From: Liolophura sinensis
Lineage: Eukaryota; Mollusca; Polyplacophora; Chitonida; Chitonidae
NCBI RefSeq assembly: GCF_032854445.1
Contig: NC_088302.1
Coordinates: 5,265,338 to 5,329,337 of the forward strand
Reading direction: 5' to 3'
DNA: 64,000 nucleotides
Part shown: positions 16,949 through 63,911 of the stretch, one piece after another
Position numbering within the stretch: the first letter of the stretch is position 1
Layout of the letters: each line of letters opens with the position of its first letter
Notes under the pieces: model-generated
Databases searched by the model: none
What the model was told of the DNA's origin: nothing
Seen by the model: only the letters and a program-made list of their open reading frames with translations
Translations under genes and position numbers: made by a program

Positions 16949-19900
16949 ATGCGAGAAATACCTCTCTCATCATGCGAAAGGGATTTTATTTTAAAAACAA
17001 TAGCTGAAAAACAGGTGCGAAATGAATGGTTCGCATCTACGCTTCTATTTTCCACCTCCAAGTTGCCCGTTTTCAATTTTAGTACTTTTACGTCTGTGTA
17101 TTGATGTGGATGGTTCTTTTAATTTTGAGAAAACAAAATATGATCTGAATCACATAAAATCATATATATGCATTGTCTGATTTTATGTTAATAGTGGTAA
17201 TATATGCGGGGTGCAAAGGCCCTGAAAATAGAGAAAATACCCCATTGATTTATATATTTGTTTATTTATTTGATTGCTGTTTTACGCCATACTCAAGAAT
17301 ATTTCACTTATACGACGGCAACCAGCATTATGGTGGGAGGAAACTGGGCTGAGCCCTGGGGAAACCCATGACTGTCCGCAGACTGCTGTCAGACCTTCCC
17401 ATGTACGGCAAGAGAGGAAGCCAACATGAGCTGGACTTGAACTCATACAAACTGCATTAGTGAGAAGCCCTCAGGTCATTACCCTACGCTAGCATGCTTA
17501 CCCACCAAGCCACAGAGGCCCCTTGATTGAGATAAAACTTACATTTATTACTTTCATGGATAACACTGCGGCCACCTGAAATCGCCATTTGTGGATACCT
17601 GGGCACTGCTATTCTGGGGTTTTCTCCATTCCTTGTTTTCATTCCGGTCATGAGCTAGTCTGATCAATAATACATGGTATACTTACCTGGGTATTAAGAT
17701 TTCCATGATGGATTTAGTGTCATAAATTTTGTTTATCTAAGTACCCGTTTGGTTGGTGATGCATCAGAAGCTGGTAAAATATTACATAGAACAAAATCTC
17801 AGAGATTCACTCAGTGGCCATGGGTCATACCTCAACAAAACCTAAGAAAGGATAAACCAAGTAACTGTTTATGATTAATGTATATGTCATTGTGGACTGT
17901 ACTGTTACTATGGCAACATATGTCATTGTGGACTGTGCTGTTACTATGGCAACATATGTCATTGTGGACTGTGCTGTTACTATGGCAGCATGTGTCATTG
18001 TGGACTGGACTGTTACTGTGGCAATATATGTCATTGCGGACTGTACTGTTACTAAGGCAACGTGTCATTGTGGACCATACTGTTGAAGACAAGTGCAACA
18101 GTAGGCCACTTCAGAGCATGTGTATTCTGACAACAACACCGTAGTTATCTGGGTAAAATGGTGATATTAAGATAACTGTAATTTGGACAGGCTCTTAAAT
18201 GTTCTAAGCAAAATTTATCTGACTCTATCTGTACACAACGAGCATGTGGAAGTGTGTTAAAATAACATTACATGTATGTTCTTAAGTTTTATTTAAAAAT
18301 TTCAAAATCATATTTGTTTTGCTTGAGTAATTTGAGCACAACAATAAGGTTTGCGAGTGAACACATATCCTGCTCATTTAATTAGATATAGCATGATATA
18401 GTGTGTTTATAGGAAACAGAGTCATATTTTTGTGTGTCACTCACTTGTCTGACTTGTGGTCTTCTTCATAAGCAGAGACTTGATGGGAGGCAGCCTTATG
18501 ACTACAGGAAGATGAAGATAAGCTTTGGATTAGACAGAGGATGCAGCCAAGTGGAGATAGGAGATACACGGTATAATAAAGAGAAATATACATGATATGA
18601 TGAAGATAACAAATGAGATGGAGGCTATAATAAGCAGATCGAGGATTTTATACTATTGATGTGGCTATATATATTTTTCAGTGCTTTACACTGTATCTTT
18701 GATAATACATTTCCTTATTAGCTCATAATATGAAAAATAGTAAAAATATATTGTTGATGAAGTGTTTATGTGTACAGGTGCTTGGCTCAGGTGTCAGGAG
18801 AAATCACAGCCCCCAAACAAACCCGTCCAACAGATGGCATCCTCTTCACCAATGTGGAGTTATCTCCTATGGCGTGTCCCAGCTTTGAACCTGGAAGGTA
18901 ATTAAGCACAATGAAGTATGTATTTCTGTGTAGTGGCAACTGGGGTCCAAGCTAAACTATCCATTGCTCTCATTGTTTGATTTTGGAAACACAGCTACAT
19001 TGGTTGGATTGAATCCAACTGATATAATTTTATCAGTCCACACAGAATAGTCTTCAGAATGTGTTTGAATAAACACCCAGGAAACCTGCGAAAAGGTTGA
19101 AGAATTGCAATAATCTGACAAAATTAACATGGTTGAAATAGGTAAAATAAGAGAAAACTGGAAATGAGAAGACCTGATGTCAAATTCTGGCTAAATCTGT
19201 GTACCAGAACAAAGAATGAACTATACAGGTTAAGTCTGAATTACTTTAGATGGGAAAGGTTAACCATTGTTACTCCACTATAAAAGAGAGTAAACATATG
19301 TGATGAATGTAACATGACAGTGTTTGATTGTATCATATGCTTGCATAGATTTGCTTCTTTGAGAAAAATAATTAAAGTGTCTGCTTGACTGATAAAAGGA
19401 TATTTTTTTTCTTAATGTTATTGAGGTTTTTCCTACGTGAGACACACAAAGAGACAAAGTAACTGTGAAACAAGACTGTTTTTAGAACTCAATCATTTCT
19501 TAATTTTCAGATTGTCAGACTTTGGTGTGGAACTAAATCGTTTGTTGGAACGGTGCCTGAAGGAGTCCAGGTGTATTGATACAGAATCATTATGTATTGT
19601 AGCAGGGGAAAAGGTGTGTATGTACAGTGGTTTGACTTAGAAGGTGTCCAGGTGTATTGATACACAGTCGTTATGTATTGTGACAAGGGAAAAGGTGTGT
19701 ATGTAAAAAGGTTTGATTTAGAAGGTATCCAGGTGTATTGATACAGAGTCGTTATGTATTATGGCAGGGGAAAGGTGTGTATGTACAATGGTTTGATTCT
19801 GAAGGAGACCAGGTGTATTGATACAGTCATTATGTATTATGGCAAGGGAAAAGGTGTGTATGTACAATAGTTTGATTTTGAAGGCGACCCGATGTATTGA

Positions 19901-22900
19901 TGCAGAGTCATTATGTATTGTGACAGGGGAAAAGTGTGTATGTACAATGGTTTGATTCTAAAGGAGACCAGATGTATTGATACAGAGTCGTCATGTATTG
20001 TGACAGGGGAAAAGGTGTGTATGTACAAGATTTGATTTTGAAGGAGCCCAGTTGTATTGATTCAGTCGTTAAGTATTGTGGTGGGGAAAAAGGTGTGCAT
20101 GTAAAATTGTTGATTTTGAAGGAGCCCAGTTGTATTGATACTGGTTAGTTCATTTTTTAGCAGGAGAAACTATTTGTAATTTATTCTTTCATGTCTGTGT
20201 GTTTAGGTGTGGACCATACGAGTTGATGTCCATGTACTGAACCATGAGGGGAATCTACTGGACTGTGTTAGTGTGGCTGCGATCACAGCACTGGCACATT
20301 TCAGGTAAGACTGACCAGTGGACATTTTCTGTTTTCCTACTTGTTGCCCACATTCTTATGTCTTACCTGTTTCTGACTACAAATCTGCTGCCATCTTATG
20401 TCTTTCTCTGCTTTTAAAATTTGAGTGTCATTAAAGACACACTATTGAGAAGCCCTAACTGGTCATGTCTTGTAATAGGTTCTCTGTGAAGATCATTGCA
20501 GTCATGTTTGAATCATCTTTTCTGTCAGGTGTGCCAGAATTTCATGTCCAGTTTGTCTGCCATCATATAAGTGTAATGTGCCTGAGTATAACAAATAATC
20601 ACCAATCAAATATACATACGAAAACATTTTTGAAAAAATGTAGCATAGCGTATGATCATCTGGTTGCCGTAATTTGCACAAATTCATTCTATTTTCTTAA
20701 CCACTTTATCTCATAGGCCATGTGTAAAAATACTCAAGTTGATAAAACAGAAATATATCTGTATACAAACACAGTTGTTTAAGTAAATACACAATGTATG
20801 CATGTGTGTTTATCAAAGTTAAGAAGGCCTGATGTTTTGTCTGTTCTAGGAGGCCTGATGTGACTGTGAATGGAGATGAGGTTACAGTGGTAAGTACAGG
20901 CAGGTAGTTACATATACATTTGTAAATCTTCAACATTTTCAACCTTCAAAGCTGTTTTTTAGTGGAATTTCTGCTTACAATTATTATGAAAATAACGCTG
21001 AAATCATTGGTTTGTGTCACCAAAGGTGCAAGCTTCCTGTGCAGATTATTTCTCTAAACCACATGGTACTATCAGAATGTTTGGAAATATCTGTTGTAGA
21101 CATTTTTGAAAAGTTGAAGAATTAAGGTACATTTACATGCGTATTGTTCGGTAATTGTAAGCAACAGAGGCCAATTCCATGAAGTCCCCTCTGACTTAAG
21201 TCAAAATATTAAACTTCATCATAATGCTTAGTTTTTTGTGCTGGAAATTAAATTTTCACACATTTGTCTCAAGAGCCTTTGGCTGGAATGTCCCACAAGA
21301 GGTGAGTAAAATTTTAATTTCTTGGGTTAAAAAATAGTCTCTCTAAAATCGTGCTGGTATTTCAGATTTTGACTTAAGTCAGAAACTGTGTTATGGAATT
21401 GATCCCGGTCATCTGTGCAATTATCTGTGCTTAGTACTGTGCATAGGTTTGACCAGCTACAGCCACAGAGCAATGAGCAATAACCAATGAGGTTTTATGT
21501 TTCAGTTGTGGTCTCGCTCATTTTTGAGGTTTTAAGTTAGCAGTTTTGTCAGGCACCTGGCAAAGGTGGTTGGTTTACTATAGCCACTCTCCTCCCTCCT
21601 AAAGTGAAAAATTAAATTCATAAATGAATAAATATTTTAACAGCTTTTTATTTTTTGAAGAACTGAAATTGTACAAGTCTTTATCATACCTCCATTGATC
21701 TCTCCTGACATCTGATTTTTTTTATTTTTTTTTTCGCCCAGCATCCTGTTGAGGAGAAGAACCCTGTACCCCTCAGTGTACTGCACATGCCTCTTACAGT
21801 CACATTCGGATTCTTCGAGCAAGGGTATGGTAGTTCATGAGTATTGTGTTATATTCTGGTTGGTCACCTTTCAGTCGCTATAACATTGTATTTGGAGAGG
21901 AAGAATGTTCCCCATGCAAACAGTTAACTAAAAGTAAAATCTGTGCAGTGTTTCATTGTAAGGTCAAAGGCCCAGCACTGGCTGAGTTAACCAAATCAGC
22001 CCTCACCACTGAGGTCATGTGTTCAAATCCAGCTCCTGATGTTTTGTAAAGAAGATTGCCAGGTGTTTGTGGAAGGCTAGTTGTTTCAATCACGCTGTGC
22101 TAGGATTTTTGTACCAGTAAACCTGATTTCAGTTTCTTGAAAAGAAATCTTTACAGCACATGAATGAAATAAAGTTACAAAACTTATAGGTTTTCAGTGG
22201 TGAAGTTTTCTGTTCATGTACACTTACCCTAGAAGCCATAATGCATATTGGAGAAATCTCACCAAAACGCTGAATAGAAAACCAGGTAGGAATAACACAG
22301 AATACTGAGGATAAAGTTATCATGTCATGGTTTGTTGTACAGGCGATATTTACTGGTGGACCCTCTGAGGAAGGAGGAGTTAGTGATGGATGGCCAGATG
22401 GTGATAGGGATGAACAAACACAGAGAGATCTGTACACTACAGATGACTGGGGACATGCTGCTGCTCAAAGACCAGGTAAACATGGGTATTCAGTATAGAC
22501 AGGTAGACATCACATGGCACAAAGACCAGGTACACAAGCACAGAGAAGTCTGTACACTACAGATGACTGGGGACATGCTGCTGCTCAAAGACCAGATAAA
22601 CATGGGCATACAGTATAGACAGGTAGACATCACATGCCACAAAGACCAGGTACACAAGCACAGAGAAGTCTGTACACTACAGATGACTGGGGACATGCTG
22701 CTGCTCAAAGACCAGGTAAACATGGGCATACAGTATAGACAGGTAGACATCACATGGCACAAAGACCAGGTACACAAGCACAGAGAAGTCTGTACACTAC
22801 AGATGACTGGGGACATGCAGCTGCTCAAAGACCAGATAAACATGGGTATTCAGTATAGACAGGTAGACATCACATGGCACAAAGACCAGGTACACAAGCA

Positions 22901-25900
22901 CAGAGAGATCTGTACACTACAGATGACTGGGGACATGCTGCTGCTCAAAGACCAGATAAACATGGGTATTCAGTACAGACAGGTAGACATCACATGGCAC
23001 AAAGACCAGGTACACAAGCACAGAGAGATCTGTACACTACAGATGACTGGGGACATGCTGCTGCTCAAAGACCAGATAAACATGGGTATTCAGTATAGAC
23101 AGGTAGACATCACATGGCACAAAGACCAGGTACACAAGCACAGAGAAGTCTGTACACTACAGATGACTGGGGACATGCTGCTGCTCAAAGACCAGATAAA
23201 CATGGGTATTCAGTATAGACAGGTAGACATCACATGGCACAAAGACCAGGTACACAAGCACAGAGAGATCTGTACACTACAGATGACTGGGGACATGCTG
23301 CTGCTCAAAGACCAGATAAACATGGGTATTCAGTATAGACAGGTAGACATCACATGGCACAAAGACCAGGTACACAAGCACAGAGAAGTCTGTACACTAC
23401 AGATGACTGGGGACATGCTGCTGCTCAAAGACCAGGTAAACATGGGTATTCAGTACAGACAGGTAGACATCACATGCCACAAAGACCAGGTACACAAGCA
23501 CAGAGAAGTCTGTACACTACAGATGACTGGGGACATGCTGCTGCTCAAAGACCAGGTAAACATGGGTATTCAGTATAGACAGGTAGACATCACATGGCAC
23601 AAAGACCAGGTACACAAGCACAGAGAAGTCTGTACACTACAGATGACTGGGGACATGCTGCTGCTCAAAGACCAGATAAACATGGGTATTCAGTTCAGAC
23701 AGGTAGACATCACATGGCACAAAGACCAGGTACACAAGCACAGAGAAGTCTGTACACTACAGATGACTGGGGACATGCTGCTGCTCAAAGACCAGATAAA
23801 CATGGGTATTCAGTATAGACAGGTAGACATCACATGGCACAAAGACCAGGTACACAAGCACAGAGAAGTCTGTACACTACAGATGACTGGGGACCTGCTG
23901 CTGCTCAAAGACCAGATAAACATGGGCATACAGTATAGACAGGTAGACATCACATGCCACAAAGACCAGGTACACAAGCACAGAGAAGTCTGTACACTAC
24001 AGATGACTGGGGACATGCAGCTGCTCAAAGACCAGATAAACATGGGCATACAGTATAGACAGGTAGACATCACATGGCACAAAGACCAGGTACACATGTG
24101 CATACAGTATAGACAGACATCACATGCCACAAAGACAAGGTACACATGTGTAAATAGTTCTGACAGGCAGACAGCACATGCCACAAAGACCAGGTACACA
24201 TTTGCATACAGTATAAACAGACAGACATTAAACGCTACAAATACCAGGTGCACATGAGAATAGTTCAGACAGGCAGACATCACATGCCACAAAGACCGGG
24301 TACACGTGTAAATAGTTCGAACAGGCAGGCATTATATGCCACAAAGACTAGGTACACATGTGCATACAGTATAGACAGGTAGACATCACATGGCACAAAG
24401 ACCATGTTCAAAAGCACAGAGAAGTCTGCACCCTACAGATGACTGGGGACATGCTGCTGCGCAAAGACCAGGTAAACATGTGTTTACAGTATAGACAGGT
24501 ATACATCACATACTTCACAAAGACGGGGTACATGGGCACAAAGAAATCTGTGCACTACAGATGACCTGGGACATGTTGCTGCTCAAAGACAAGGAAAATA
24601 TGTGTAAATAGTTTAGACAGGTAGACATCACATGCCACAAAGACCAGGTACACAAGCACGGAGAAGTCTGTACACTACAGATGACTGGCGACATGCTGCT
24701 GCTCAGAGACATGGTACACATGTGTAAATAGTTCATACAGGCAGACATCACATGCCACAAAGACCAGGTACACATGTGCATAGACAGGTAGACATCACAT
24801 GCCAGAAAGACCAAGTAAATTTATTTATTTATTTATTTATTTGATTGGTGTTTTACGCCGAACTCAAGAATATTTCACTTATATGACGGCGGCCAGCATT
24901 ATGGTGGGTGGAAACTGGGGAGAGCCCGGGGAAAACCCACAACCATCCACAGGTTGCTGACAGACCTTCCCACGTATGGCCAGAGAGAAAGCCAGCATGA
25001 ACTGGACTTGAACTCACAGGGACCGCATTGGTGAGAGACTCCTGGGTCATTATGCTGCGCTAGTGTGCTAACCAACTGAGCCACGGAGGCCCCAGACCAA
25101 GTAAACATGTGTAAATAATTAAGATAGGCAGACATCACATGCCTCAAAGACCAGGTAAACATGTGTATACAGTATAGACAGGTAGACATCACATACTGCA
25201 CAAAGACCAGGTACATGGGCACTAAGAAATCTGAACACTACAGATGACCGGGGACATGCTGCTGCTCAAAGACAGGGTACACATGTGTAATTAGTTAAGA
25301 CAGGCAGACAAACAGTTACAAAGACCAGTTACACATGTGTTAACAGTTCTGACAGGCAGACATCACATGCCACAAAGACCAGGTACATGTGTATATACAG
25401 GTAGAGATCACATGCCACAAAGGCCAGGAACACATGTGCATGCAGTATAGACAGACAGGCAGACATGACATGCCACAAAGACCAGGTACACATTTGCATA
25501 CAGTATAGACAGGTAGATATCACATGCCACAAAGACCCGATAAACATGTGTAAATAGTTCAGACAGGTAGACATCACATGCGACAAAGACCAGGCAAACT
25601 TGTAAATAGTTCAGACAGGCAGACATCACATGCCACAAAGACCAGGTACACATTTTGTCAAGCCTACTGTACATTTCTATAGATATTGCGTACTGCTGAA
25701 AGACCAGGCCCGCATGTGCTACTGACTTTCTCAGAGTTTAATATTGCTTTATTTGATTAACAGATGTCATTGTTAAATTTTTAAATCAGCAATCACATTC
25801 AAATTACCCTGTTTGCATTAAAACATCAACATTGTTTGAACAGGTGTTGAGATGCTCCAATATTGCTGTTGTAAAAGTCACAGAGATTACAGAACTGATA

Positions 25901-28900
25901 CAGAAGGCTCTCAAGTCTGATGCCGCAAAAAGGTAAGTGATATTTGTCAGTGGGTTCTTCGTGATTGTATTTGATTATTTGATTCTTCTTTTACTACCAC
26001 ATTTTAAGTATAAGTTGATTCAGCTAATATGAGCAAAAGCTATATAAGCTATAAAAGCAGTATAGATGTATCTAGGTTGATATGTTTGCTGAATGTGTTA
26101 AGATAAAGGCTTCTAAATTATACTGTAATATTGATAGAACACAAGTGTAAAGTTATAAAAGCTTTGCTCTTTTGTGAAAAATCTGGACATAAAAGGAATA
26201 GGATGCACATATTTTGTTGCCCCCCACATTTGCTCACAGTGGATACTAGGGATATCACCATGGAACTGGAGCTTTTGGGTGTTGAGTACTTTATTGTTCA
26301 CCTATAGCTAACTTTGACTTGCAGAAGCACTGGGGATAAGGTTGGCTTTACGGAGTTATATGAAGCAGTGAAAATTACCTCCAACGCAAAAGAGGAGGAG
26401 GATGTAGATATCAGTGATGTGAAGGATGCAGCAATGGAGGTTGTTAGACAGGGCAAAGAATTAACAAAAGAGGATGCCAAACTCAAGTATCCTTTGCAAT
26501 GTGTGCAGTTTTCCTATCCCCGCCCTCCAGATAATTGTCAGATATGGAAACATGATGCTTAAATGTTTGAAAGTGTTTTTGTAGACCAATTGACCAGAAG
26601 TACTGACAGTCTTAATCTATTTTGAAAAAAAAACAAAAACATGTGAGCACATACTTTGTGTGTGAGGATACACAGATTACATTTGAAAATCACAAGATAG
26701 CATCTTTTTGGGGAAGATGTCCTATGTGGACTTGTCCAAGATTTTTGTGCAGTAAATCCTACTGTTTTGCCCTTTGTGATTGGCTGGCTACTTCTGTTCA
26801 AATTCAAAATCTCGGTTGTCTGTTAGGTCTTCTTGGCCACTTCTCTCCTGATGTAATCTGGTTACTACTGGTTACAAACATTGTTAAAACCTCAGAAAGG
26901 TATCCTTCTTTTGATAATAGAGAGTCTGTTACATTACAGAGTGCATGTATGGACTAATCTTCTCTACATGACCTGTGTAATATTCTGTACATGACCTGTA
27001 AAATGTTCTGTACATGACCTGTGTAATATTCTGTACATAACCTGTGTATTATTGTGTACATGACCTGTGTAATATTCTGTACCTGACACTTGACCTGTGT
27101 AATATTCTGTACATAACCTGTGTATTATTGTGTACATGATTTGTGTAATATTCTGTACCTGGCACTTGACGTGTGTAATATTCTGTACATAACCTGTGTA
27201 TTATTGTGTACATGATTTGTGTAATATTCTGTACATGACCTGTGTGGTATTCTGTATATGTACATGACCTGTGTATTAAATGCTACAATGTCATTTATAC
27301 CCGCCATGATTTTACCCTTTACTGTGCAACTCAGCCAGAAAACTGCTGTGAAAGTTGTGGTAAGTAGAATGTTCATGACAATTTGTTTTCAAAACAGAGC
27401 AGTATATGTACATGTGTATGTACATTGACATTCAGAACAAACACTAATTTTGTCAGTGTAGAGAAATGGATGCCTGGAATTTGCGGTAAGAAGTTGTCAG
27501 AGGAAGCCGACCATGAAGACTGTAGTGTGTAATATCCTTTAGTCCTGGATATTATTTCAGTGTATGTTTAAGAACTCCTCCAGTTCTGAGAGAACCTAGA
27601 CTGAATTGTTAAAGTTGTGTGAATGACGTCTTTATGTTGAACAGACGGACACCATGGTTCAAAAAGATTTATAGTATAATGGAAAACAAAAAAAATATTT
27701 GCACAATTTGCTATATGTGAAATAAATGTAATTTCTGATATGACATTGAATTGAGCAGATGTTTGTATAAATGTTATTCTCTAAAGTGGGTGAAGTTCAT
27801 TATGTGTGGACAGCATTTTGAAAAGCAATCCAGACTGAACTGGTGAGTCAGTATTGGAATATACATGTGTGTTGCTTGTTCCTCAGGCCCCTGGGACCGG
27901 TCAGATTGGAGAGGGAGGACCCAACTCATGGTTGTTAGATGAGGACTTGGAGAAAGACTTGGAGCAAGAGGAGGCCATTTTGCAGAAGAAGGGAGATAAC
28001 TCTGCAACCAAGAGCATCCCAATTGCTCCTGCAGGTGGAGGTGAGTTGATGGGTCATATTTAGATAATGTCACAATAAACAATAGTGTACTTGTCTATTG
28101 TGAATTGATTTTACTTCCTGTTTGAACAAAAACTGTCTGTTACATATTTCTGAAACAGATAATGGTTAGCGTATGTGAAAATGGGGAAGTTTTATCAGTA
28201 ATGGGGAACTTGTAAAACTCCTTCCCACCTGTATCAAGACAGTCCAGAGCTGTGAACTCATTAATTCTTCCCTTTATTACGTCACAATTATTGGTGCATG
28301 TGTGCTCATAAAACTCCTTCCCCCCGTATCAAGACAGTCCAAACCCGTGAACTCATTAATTCTTCCCTTTATTATGTCACAGTTATGGGTGTATATGTGC
28401 TCATAAAACTCCTTCCCCCCTGTATCAAGACAGTCCAAAGCCGTGAACTCATTAATTCTTCCCTTTATTACATCACAATTATGGGTGCATGTGTGCTCAT
28501 AAAACTCCTTTCCCCCTGTATCAAGACAGTCCAAAGCCGTGAACTCATTAATTCTTCCCTTTATTACATCACAGTTATGGGTGTATGTGCGCTCATAAAA
28601 CATATATGAAGTACACAGGCACTGTAATGTCACAGAAGAAAGTGATGAGTTCTCCTGTCATTTGGACCTTCTGTGTAGCTGGTCCTGGAGTCTCCCAGTG
28701 ATATAAATACATGGTGATTATTTAATTGTTTATTTTGCACCATTTAGAAGAGCGTGTGGATGATTATTGAGAAATTAACATGATCAGTCTCCCATGGACA
28801 TGACAATCTTTTTGTCATAAATCTAATTGTGTGTTTCATGGTGTAAGGATTGGTGTGTGGGAACCTCTTTTCTAAAGTGCCACATGTGCTTGAATCCTCC

Positions 28901-33796: not shown

Positions 33797-36700
33797 CTAC
33801 AATGGTAGCGACATGGGAGGTTGCATGAGCGACACCTGGTGGAATCTGCAACAGAGAAAGGGCAATGGATGCAAGTTGAGTTTATTTGGAAAAATAGAGT
33901 GAAAGAAACAAACTTTCAATTATATTTTTTGAAAAATTGTGAAAACATAAAAAGTTTGGTGCATGTAAATACATAAATGATTGGTTACATCTGCCTTCAA
34001 TTTGGTGTGCATGCATGTAATTTGCAGCTTTTTTAAAAGCAGAAATGAACGAATACAAGTCCCATCATGCAAAACAATTATACATGTATGCAAGACTAGT
34101 ATATTTGGCTTACTTTGGTTGTCTGTATTTCTCCTGCACAGCCTGTTGTGCGTGGTTTGGAGACTCACAGAAGGTACGATGTAACTGGTGCAGGCATTCA
34201 CTCAACTGAGGGATGTCATAACCAGTCTCTTGGACCATTTGACTAGACTGAAGAGAAAAGGATGGCGGAAACTTCAGTAATAACAAAAAGAATATTTGGA
34301 TTCTTAGTATGGTCCATGTTAAAAATGGGTCAAATTAAAACAGATCGATCAAGTAAGCTACTTGGATGCATATTAAAAAAAAAAACAAACTTTTACTACC
34401 CAGCTGTTTAGAACAGAATTATGATGTAAAAACGAGTTTATAGCTTTGGACCTTTTCGTTACAAGCAGGACATTTTTATAAGTTCCCCGGTTCTCGTGTC
34501 TAATGTACCACGAGGTATTTTAAACACATCGAGGCTTACCCAGGCTTCTTTCTGGAATGTGTGGTTGGCTAAACAGACAGCAGCTGCAGCTATCGTACTG
34601 GGCAAGAACTTCATATAAGTCTCAGCATCTATCAACGTCGATTCAATCAAGAACTGAAAATTGGGAAAAAAAAAAAAAAGAAAAAAAGTCAGATTTAAGG
34701 TATGGAGGCATGGCCTGGTCAGCATATATGGCAATCAGGAATAGGCCTGTTGGTTGCACCGATAACTAAAATGTTGGGGGTTATGCAACATTATCTGAAT
34801 TATTATTCGATTATCTGAATATTCGGTATGACGGGACAATTCCAAAACTGTCTTCTCTCCAGTTGGTTTGAACATTGTTATGCAAATTTTGCCAGGCAAT
34901 TCTCAGTAGCCGAGAAGATATTTCAAATATTAGTCCTACATTAAAGTAAATAAATTACCCACCATAGCCAGAGCCTCCACTTTCTCATCAGCACCACATT
35001 GCTTAACAAAGCGCTCACAGAACCAGTTAATGGTGGGGACTGCCACATCAAAAGACAGAACCTTCAACACCAAGTGCTCCATTCGTAATACCTGAAAAGA
35101 TTAGGTTAAACAATTTACGGGTAAAATATAACTTGAACTCCAGAAAAAAACAAAAAAAAACAAACAAACATTCACATCTTGCTTCTTAAATGTCTCGGTA
35201 TAACAATGTGGCCATTACCTGCTTCTTTGAATAGGTGTCGTCAGTGATGTAAACAAATTCCCCAACATCTGGTGGATAAATTTCTTCATATTTTCTGTAG
35301 GAAAAAAAAAAACGGAGCGCAACAAAGTTAATTAATGTATATTAGGGAATGAAGGATATGTTTTATAAGCATACTGGATTAAACTTTCAGCCTTACAAGA
35401 CCATCCAACATAGCAATTCGAGAGCAACAGGGAGAAGTGGACAAAAAACTGGTCCATCTAGATGGACTCCTATGAATGTCCATTTTGAAATAGTGTCAAG
35501 ACCAAAAAAAAAAAAAAATGGCAAGGATTTCAAACTCCCATCTCCTCCAATTGTGGCATCATCTATGTAATTTTATGATGGAATCTGATACTATCCTATA
35601 AAACTTGCATGAGCGGTCATTGACTGCTAGAACTTCTGCGGTACCAAGTGCCTTGCTGTCTACAGCCACTTTGAAATGACATTTTCAGGTTTGAAATGCA
35701 ACAGACTTGGTATTGAAATCCAAGAATACTATTTCTATTGCCATCTCCAAGAACTTCAACCTTAATTCAATCCAAAACATGCTGTGAGTGCGGACCTCAC
35801 TGAGATCGTGGGAAGGTCTGTCAGCAACATGCAGATGTTAGTGGGTCCCTCCCCCTGTTTCCTGCCACCATAATGCTGGCCACCAAGTGAAATATTCGAC
35901 TATGGTGTAAAACACCAATCAAATAAACAAAAAGCAGATGACCAAATAGCAGACCATGCAAAACTGAACATTAAATAAAAAAAAAAATAGGCACCCTTGG
36001 AGGCCAGATCACTGTTCCTATCAAGGGAATTTAGGCAAACGTCTATCCAGAACTAGATAGCACTTACGCTGCCAAGAACATGCTGGCTGCTCCCACAAGT
36101 TGTAGCTTTCCTCTAAGGACGGACATATGTGAGAGAAACCGGTCAATGTAGTTAACAGCCAAGAACAGAGTTTCCCTGTGAAGCTTGTATTCCTCTGCAA
36201 CCTCTACTAGCCAGTCTACCAATATACACCTCATGTTAGTCGTGATATCTGGCTGCTTCTTCATGTAACCAGCTTTTGGACGATTTCTGGTCTGAAAATG
36301 GAAAAGGAAAAAAAAAAAAAATACATTAACAGCCGTGCATAACCACAGATTCAGTGAATGTTTTAGTCCAGGGGTCATCATTCAATATTTAAAAAAAAAA
36401 AAAAAAGCTCAAGGTGAAGACAAATAATTGAAGATAATTGACTCAATTACGAATATTTGCATGGTACAAATCTGACTATACCGGTATTTTAATTGTTGAA
36501 TTATTTTACTTTGACCTGTGGACATACCTCTGCTTCCCTTAAGTAAGCATAGATGTCTGCGGCATACTCTGGCACGCCCACTATTATGGCATCACGATCT
36601 GCTTTTTCATCCCTTTCTTCTATAGAAGTATCCAACACCATAGGAGATTCTGCAATAATATCGTATATCCAATGTTAAAAACTGACAATTATGATCCACA

Positions 36701-42729: not shown

Positions 42730-63911
<21,182 letters not shown>

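What the first reader, a model, noticed from the sequence alone, without database searches (positions are those of the whole stretch)
22343..24257. EXOSC9 exon 8 end and its splice donor are tandemly copied 14 times, in frame
The 120-bp unit spans the exon/intron border. Every unit repeats the coding segment HREICTLQMTGDMLLLKDQ and the donor CAG|GTAAAC. Unit length is divisible by three and no unit has a stop in the exon frame, so using the donor of copy n would add (n-1) x 40 residues and still join exon 9 (VLRCSN) in phase. This could give a length-variable RRP45, or the array may act only as decoy donors. Near-identical copies suggest recent expansion.
Basis: partly seen in the sequence, partly recalled or inferred. 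Interest (0 to 1): 0.85.

Follow-up and report, generated by a model that had tools for sequence, protein, structure and literature searches.

The report
Splice-junction minisatellite in chiton EXOSC9
In a chiton gene for an RNA-degrading complex, the end of one exon together with its splice signal has been copied head-to-tail 14 times into the next intron; this is a known kind of repeat ("mirage") that recurs in other genes sampled from this genome, and it most likely does not lengthen the protein.

Summary
The array is real: 14 near-identical 120-bp units (22414-24096) begin inside exon 8 of EXOSC9/RRP45 and carry its last 62 bases and splice donor into the intron. One detail of the finding is wrong: only units 1, 3, 9 and 10 keep CAG|GTAAAC, and ten read CAGATAAAC. 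The exon frame is open to 24255, but this is little more than chance.

It is not a one-off. The same gene has a second array over the exon-4 donor, and RAD50 in the window has a third. In three gene families sampled across this genome, 12 of 189 exon ends and 5 of 189 exon starts carry junction-spanning arrays, near what random array placement predicts.

The assembly matches the published chiton Liolophura sinensis. Amphioxus genes have the same structures, called "mirages". The best explanation is recurrent neutral tandem duplication, tolerated because the exon-side copy of the junction stays intact. The array is then intronic, with the 22475 donor the main one. A length-variable RRP45 is unlikely, but transcripts and individuals could not be examined. 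New here: a chiton, a rough rate, and natural sets of identical competing donors. Five paper searches listed no report of this in chitons or other molluscs.

The parts
22343..22475 (+). Exon 8 of EXOSC9/RRP45; its last 62 bases (22414-22475) are part of unit 1 of the array
   Evidence: PDB 2nn6_A E 3.4e-14; tblastn gene model; acceptor and donor positions
22473..22481 (+). Presumed true 5' splice site CAG|GTAAAC, cut after 22475
22414..24096 (+). Tandem array, 14 units of 120 bp (62 bp exon-derived, 58 bp intron-derived)
   Evidence: TRF; unit table
22713..22721 (+). Copied donor CAG|GTAAAC, unit 3 (identical copies at 23433 in unit 9 and 23553 in unit 10)
24255..24257 (+). First in-frame stop (TGA) after exon 8
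24412..24471 (+). Older diverged copy of the exon-8 end
24536..24593 (+). Older diverged copy of the exon-8 end
24652..24710 (+). Older diverged copy of the exon-8 end
25219..25273 (+). Older diverged copy of the exon-8 end
25094..25653 (+). Degenerate ~54-bp repeats; many units end in AAAGACCAGGTA or a one-mismatch form, a short exon-end/donor copy
   Evidence: TRF; 12-mer positions
25844..25932 (+). Exon 9 (VLRCSN...), the splice partner
19511..19613 (+). Exon 4 of EXOSC9; its last ~55 bases and donor AAG|GTGTGT seed a second array
19558..20141 (+). Second junction-spanning array in the same gene, ~81 bp x 7.3, over the exon-4 donor
   Evidence: TRF; similarity z 27.9
59420..61609 (-). Third junction-spanning array: ~50-bp units over the donor (GAG|GTACAG, cut at 61590) of a RAD50 exon (61685-61590)

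Best explanation
The array is a splice-junction-spanning minisatellite of the kind called a 'mirage' in amphioxus. A tandem duplication covered the last 62 bases of EXOSC9 exon 8, its 5' splice site and 58 bases of intron. Further duplication and homogenisation expanded it to 14 units beside the exon, while older copies drifted further downstream. The duplication does no harm because the exon-side copy keeps the whole exon and its donor in place; everything after 22475 stays intronic and is removed by splicing to exon 9. Similar arrays lie in many introns of this genome and run into exon ends about as often as random placement predicts. Shown: anatomy, copy relations, recurrence, random-like placement in the sample. 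Inferred: that the 22475 donor is used almost exclusively and that the array has no function.
For: Array and exon identity. Two more junction arrays in the window; exon ends recur in 3 of 23 downstream introns, next-exon starts in 0 of 23. Genome sample: 12 of 189 exon ends and 5 of 189 exon starts carry junction-spanning arrays after curation by eye. Random placement of the same arrays gives donor 8.1 expected against 10 seen, acceptor 7.9 against 6, whole-exon 16.2 against 1 (automatic exon boundaries). Donor GTs are kept in 143 of 163 array copies, other GTs of the same units in 563 of 654, so no overall purge or preservation (one of its 12 arrays, L042, was later dropped). No codon-position bias in older copies. 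Period divisible by 3 in 5 of 15 arrays. Precedent: amphioxus mirages, reported not to interfere with regular splicing (PMC3087553 passages; PMC3902484 passage).
Against: No RNA data, so the donor used is not observed. Three copied donors (units 3, 9, 10) match the true one at all nine splice-site positions, sit in nearly identical local context and are in phase. Leaving out the exon-8 array, donor GTs are kept in 130 of 138 copies against 464 of 539 other GTs, and the per-array comparison over all 12 arrays gives P 0.034; copies within an array are not independent, so this is a hint at most. Among 11 distinct unit substitutions 5 are synonymous against 18.9% expected (P 0.04); this ignores transition bias and rests on few events. 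The decline of identity with distance from the exon is not general: of 9 arrays with four or more full copies it reaches P below 0.05 in 2 (EXOSC9 exon 8, RAD50). Exon ends are hit more often than exon starts (12 v 5, P 0.14), so some donor preference is not excluded.
Confidence: 0.85

Rival explanations
1. Length-variable RRP45: donors in different units are used, adding 80, 320 or 360 residues (units 3, 9, 10) and still joining exon 9 in phase.
For: Frame open to 24255; four identical CAG|GTAAAC donors (true one included) and 28 weaker GT sites lie in phase before the stop. Human internal repeats at exon-intron boundaries can change splicing (PMC2812944 passages). 5 of 11 distinct unit substitutions are synonymous (P 0.04).
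Against: 10 of 14 units lost the GT. An extra stretch would interrupt the conserved region between KDQ and VLRCS. No codon-position bias in older copies. The sister array of exon 4 stops in frame 24 bases after its donor. Amphioxus mirages are reported not to disturb splicing.
Confidence: 0.06
2. Functional donor array: the many 5'-splice-site-like copies bind U1 or act as decoys that tune splicing or intron retention.
For: Sites scoring 4.4 bits or more from the true donor through intron 8: 52 against 18.4 in shuffles (weight matrix recalled, not from a call). Donor GTs kept in 130 of 138 copies outside the exon-8 array.
Against: With all 12 arrays the retention equals that of other GTs (143/163 v 563/654). 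Array positions look random with respect to exon ends.
Confidence: 0.06
3. Duplication is targeted to 5' splice sites, for example by transcription-coupled breaks at the junction.
For: 12 donor against 5 acceptor cases in the sample; 3 against 0 in the window, one of which is why the window was examined.
Against: 12 v 5 gives P 0.14 and 14 v 5 gives P 0.064; the donor count is near random expectation (10 v 8.1). A selection filter could give the same bias: extra acceptors upstream of the true one should be more harmful than extra donors downstream (inference).
Confidence: 0.08
4. Assembly artefact in copy number.
For: Near-identical arrays can be mis-sized; no reads were available here.
Against: HiFi reads average 8,347 bp at 14x (PMC11068029), about five times the 1.7-kb array; units carry a non-trivial variant pattern; the same architecture recurs at other loci.
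Confidence: 0.03

Closest known systems
Amphioxus 'mirages' (Adh3, BflGb6, BflGb9, TnC; Canestro et al. 2002 as cited in PMC3087553 and PMC3902484)
   Same: Minisatellite-like tandem copies of an exon-intron boundary, splice signals included; both 5' and 3' boundaries affected; homogenised units; reported units of 10-160 bp
   Different: Here the genome is a chiton (mollusc), not a cephalochordate; a family-based sample gives 17 junction arrays at 378 tested exon ends and starts; regular splicing and length variation, reported in amphioxus, are untested here
Human internal tandem repeats at exon-intron boundaries in segmental duplications (PMC2812944)
   Same: Tandem repeats located at exon-intron boundaries
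   Different: There they vary between paralogues, with transcript support for new introns; here one locus was found by the DNA search and no transcripts were seen
[quoted passage not shown] potato RdRp, PMC4974935)
   Same: Tandem duplication across an intron-exon boundary copies splice signals
   Different: No new intron is evident here; the copies lie inside an existing intron

Membership tests
Mirage minisatellite (amphioxus) | Tandem repeat whose unit spans an exon-intron boundary | tested here: met
   Unit 1 = 22414-22533 spans the exon-8 donor
Mirage minisatellite (amphioxus) | Copies carry splice signals, many but not all intact | tested here: met
   4 of 14 units keep CAG|GTAAAC; donor GT kept in 143 of 163 copies over 12 arrays, one of them (L042) later dropped
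Mirage minisatellite (amphioxus) | Occurs in several genes and at both boundary types | tested here: met
   12 of 189 exon ends, 5 of 189 exon starts after curation by eye
Mirage minisatellite (amphioxus) | Concerted evolution inside the cluster, diverged outer units | tested here: met
   In the EXOSC9 exon-8 array: 93-98% near the exon, 84-87% in the four distal full copies, rho -0.66, P 0.004; the decline is significant in 2 of 9 arrays tested
Mirage minisatellite (amphioxus) | Regular splicing is not disturbed | not testable with these tools
   No transcript data
Mirage minisatellite (amphioxus) | Length polymorphism and somatic instability | not testable with these tools
   The DNA search found and scored one candidate region in G000, so no second haplotype to compare
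Coding VNTR (length-variable protein) | Repeat is translated, with frame and codons maintained | tested here: inconclusive
   Frame open to 24255, but no codon-position bias in older copies (P 0.51); 5 of 11 distinct substitutions synonymous, P 0.04
Intron gain by tandem duplication | A new intron bounded by duplicated splice signals | not testable with these tools
   Needs transcripts or an outgroup gene structure

The most novel reading that the evidence does not exclude
Chitons independently evolved a genome-wide population of thousands of splice-junction minisatellites (several percent of exon ends), in which copied donors, identical to the true one and in phase in some genes such as EXOSC9 and perhaps a TCP1-family gene, are used at a measurable level, so exon length varies with array length between individuals or cells.
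Probability: 0.12. Interest if true: 0.8.

Novelty: new member of a known kind. Interest (0 to 1): 0.45.

Why it matters
If the sampled rate holds, this chiton carries very many natural experiments in which near-identical 5' splice sites compete in cis at fixed spacing. That makes the old question of how the spliceosome chooses among identical sites testable in a living animal with ordinary long-read cDNA. It also extends mirages from cephalochordates to a mollusc, which suggests that they may arise wherever minisatellite turnover in introns is high. For annotation, gene predictors may call false exons or wrong donors in such introns.

Tried and rejected
Rejected: 'every unit keeps the donor'. 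Rejected as evidence of coding: the open frame, because the exon end makes up half the unit and only 5 of 15 arrays have a period divisible by 3. Rejected cases in the genome sample: L042 (the Pfam match ran past the donor; the array is intronic), the L006 pair 26642195/26643291 (read as mutually exclusive exons), the second L032 hit (same array), L079 (array stops short of the exon). Dropping L042 would give 140/160 against 541/631 (my arithmetic), no change in reading. The automatic counts still contain L042 and L079. The binomial values printed for 10 v 3, 12 v 3 and 10 v 6, and its 5 of 12 for periods, used uncurated counts and are not relied on.

Led nowhere: no tRNA and no Rfam match at gathering score in the window. 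Canestro 2002 and Zhuo 2007 are not held; a guessed DOI for Canestro was not held either. Literature searches for the phenomenon; one search listed 15 of 144 papers, the other four listed all they found. I judged listings by title and opening of the abstract and opened six papers in part (PMC3087553, PMC3902484, PMC11068029, its correction PMC12441733, PMC4974935, PMC2812944); the mollusc gene-structure papers listed were not opened. AlphaFold was not run: a spliced protein is not contiguous in the window.
Full report
The observation. The tandem array is there: TRF reports 14.0 copies of a 120-bp unit at 22414-24096 with 97% matches, and each unit differs from the consensus at 0-4 positions. 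The exon is the eighth of EXOSC9/RRP45: residues 2-44 of its translation match the human exosome subunit 2nn6_A at E 3.4e-14. The exon frame stays open for 637 codons, to a TGA at 24255. The finding errs on the donors: units 1, 3, 9 and 10 keep CAG|GTAAAC, while the other 10 of 14 read CAGATAAAC. Before the stop, 4 GTAAAC sites (the true donor included), 14 GTACAC and 14 GTAGAC sites lie in the exon phase.

Depth of the structure. The array is the youngest layer. Four diverged copies of the exon end lie further downstream (24412-24471, 24536-24593, 24652-24710, 25219-25273). A shorter ~54-bp repeat fills much of the remaining intron, and many of its units end in the same AAAGACCAGGTA that ends the exon and begins the intron. 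That 12-mer, allowing one mismatch, occurs 43 times between 22467 and 25637 and nowhere else in the window. Because the exon side codes LKDQ, which is also present in human RRP45, I infer that the exon is the source and the intron copies are derived. Identity to unit 1 falls with distance: 93-98% for the next 13 units, 84-87% for four distal full copies (rho -0.66, P 0.004). This decline is not general: of 9 arrays with four or more full copies it reaches P below 0.05 in two, this one and RAD50.

Not a single case. The tblastn output also showed that the 81-bp array at 19558-20141 in the same gene is made of the exon-4 end and its donor. A 50-bp array at 59420-61609 on the minus strand includes the donor of a RAD50 exon. 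I tested 23 introns of the two genes: the exon end recurs in the downstream intron in 3 of 23 (z 27.9, 36.2 and 8.6), and the start of the next exon recurs in the upstream intron in 0 of 23. In RAD50, the first bases of a further intron (after 58282) are copied without exon sequence (z 15.6), and in the 50-bp case the last 40 bases before the assigned next exon also recur (z 9.7), though that exon start is uncertain. The window was picked for one of the three exon-end cases.

Genome sample. The window lies in G000, contig C8. I listed exon matches of three Pfam families (myosin head, TCP1 chaperonin, kinesin: 81, 50 and 132 matches) and took 190 of these 263 by hand, favouring neighbouring exons with few stops, in 80 stretches of 227,180 bases. 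It is therefore not a random sample of genes. 189 exon ends and 189 exon starts had enough flank to test. Self-similarity of 34 or more (highest value over shuffles 32) was found for 12 exon ends and 4 exon starts. By eye I removed one mutually exclusive exon pair (one hit on each side), one second hit in the same array and one misplaced exon end, which leaves 9 and 3. I then added short or degenerate junction arrays found through TRF edges, a step that covered the 170 exon ends and 170 exon starts with an acceptable splice-site score: three at exon ends and two at exon starts. The curated count is 12 of 189 exon ends (L010, L032, two in L053, L057, L065, two in L066, and the shorter or more degenerate L006, L040, L048, L072) and 5 of 189 exon starts (L015, L041, L074, L037, L013). 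The donor excess is not significant (12 v 5, P 0.14; 14 v 5 with the two unselected window cases, P 0.064).

Placement. Merged tandem arrays (period 20 or more, TRF score 100 or more) number 65 and cover 29,369 of the 227,180 bases. Random placement of them inside the same stretches, over 151 exons with both ends assigned automatically, predicts 8.1 donor-spanning, 7.9 acceptor-spanning and 16.2 whole-exon overlaps; 10, 6 and 1 are seen. The automatic set includes L042 and L079, which I reject by eye, and its one whole-exon case is the second L032 copy. The simplest reading is that arrays arise without regard to exon ends, that those engulfing whole exons are removed by selection, and that those reaching into one exon end survive because the exon-side copy of the junction remains intact. 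The last two steps are inference.

Function tests. If copied donors were purged or needed, their GT should differ from other GTs in the same units. Over 12 donor arrays it does not: 143 of 163 kept, against 563 of 654 (L042 is among the 12). Without the exon-8 array it is 130 of 138 against 464 of 539, and a per-array test on all 12 gives P 0.034; copies within an array are not independent, so I take this as a hint only. For translation, the four older exon-end copies differ from the array consensus by 8, 4 and 6 changes at codon positions 1, 2 and 3 (P 0.51). Against the exon itself they differ by 7, 3 and 12 (summed), a third-position excess that I ascribe to changes on the exon's own lineage because it vanishes against the consensus. 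Among 11 distinct substitutions between units 5 are synonymous against 18.9% expected (P 0.04), a small sample that ignores transition bias; the chance of no stop among 11 substitutions is 0.61. Of 15 donor arrays, 5 have a period divisible by three, as chance predicts. Of those five, the exon-8 array (14.8 units) and one TCP1-family array (L066, 6.5 units) are open in frame; the other three stop within one unit.

Organism and literature. G000 has 632 contigs with C1 of 96,433,062 and C9 of 37,343,639 bases. These equal the longest scaffold and the N50 of the chiton assembly published as Liolophura japonica, 632 scaffolds (PMC11068029, passages), since corrected to L. sinensis (PMC12441733, passages). 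The totals differ slightly (609,464,459 bases held, 609,495,693 published). HiFi reads averaged 8,347 bp at 14x, long enough to span the array. [quoted passage not shown] PMC3902484 (passage) adds TnC and PGBD5. The original Adh3 paper is not held and is known to me through these citations and from recall. Human repeats at exon-intron boundaries have been linked to new introns (PMC2812944, passages), and tandem duplication across a boundary gave a new potato intron (PMC4974935, abstract). Searches listed no such report for a chiton or another mollusc by title or abstract opening; the mollusc papers among them were not opened, and one search listed 15 of 144.

Verdict. The array is a mirage-type junction minisatellite, one of a class that recurs in this chiton. 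The most likely state is that the 22475 donor is used and the array is spliced out. The three identical, in-phase copied donors make EXOSC9 a clean natural test of donor choice, and that is the main reason to look further. No transcripts, reads or second individuals were available.

Noticed in passing
59420-61609 (minus strand): RAD50 intron array of 50-bp units starting inside the exon end (donor GAG|GTACAG); 39 of 42 scored copies keep GT.
   Followed up: yes
55624-58266 (minus strand): 89-bp x 30 array beginning about 15 bases inside a RAD50 intron; its first intron bases are copied but no exon sequence is.
   Followed up: partly
34104-34247 (minus strand): Cyclin C-terminal domain match (Pfam PF02984, E 2.1e-5) near EXOSC9; EXOSC9 and CCNA2 are also neighbours in human (recalled), so the pair may be an old linkage.
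   Followed up: no
24822-25110: Dispersed-repeat-like segment inside EXOSC9 intron 8, similar by eye to a stretch near 42.9 kb on the other strand; looks like a SINE family.
   Followed up: no
G000 contig C99: Seven COX1 matches about 15.5 kb apart on one contig, and one on C632: the mitochondrial genome seems to be assembled as a head-to-tail concatemer.
   Followed up: no
L032 2188-4260: Kinesin exon end and donor in a 73-bp x 22 array, with a second, longer copy of the exon end near the far side; could be a step toward exon or intron gain.
   Followed up: partly
L006 596-1787 (C1:26642195 and 26643291): Myosin exons of the same segment in tandem copies at 78-81% identity, with a further copy between them; read as mutually exclusive exons.
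   Followed up: no
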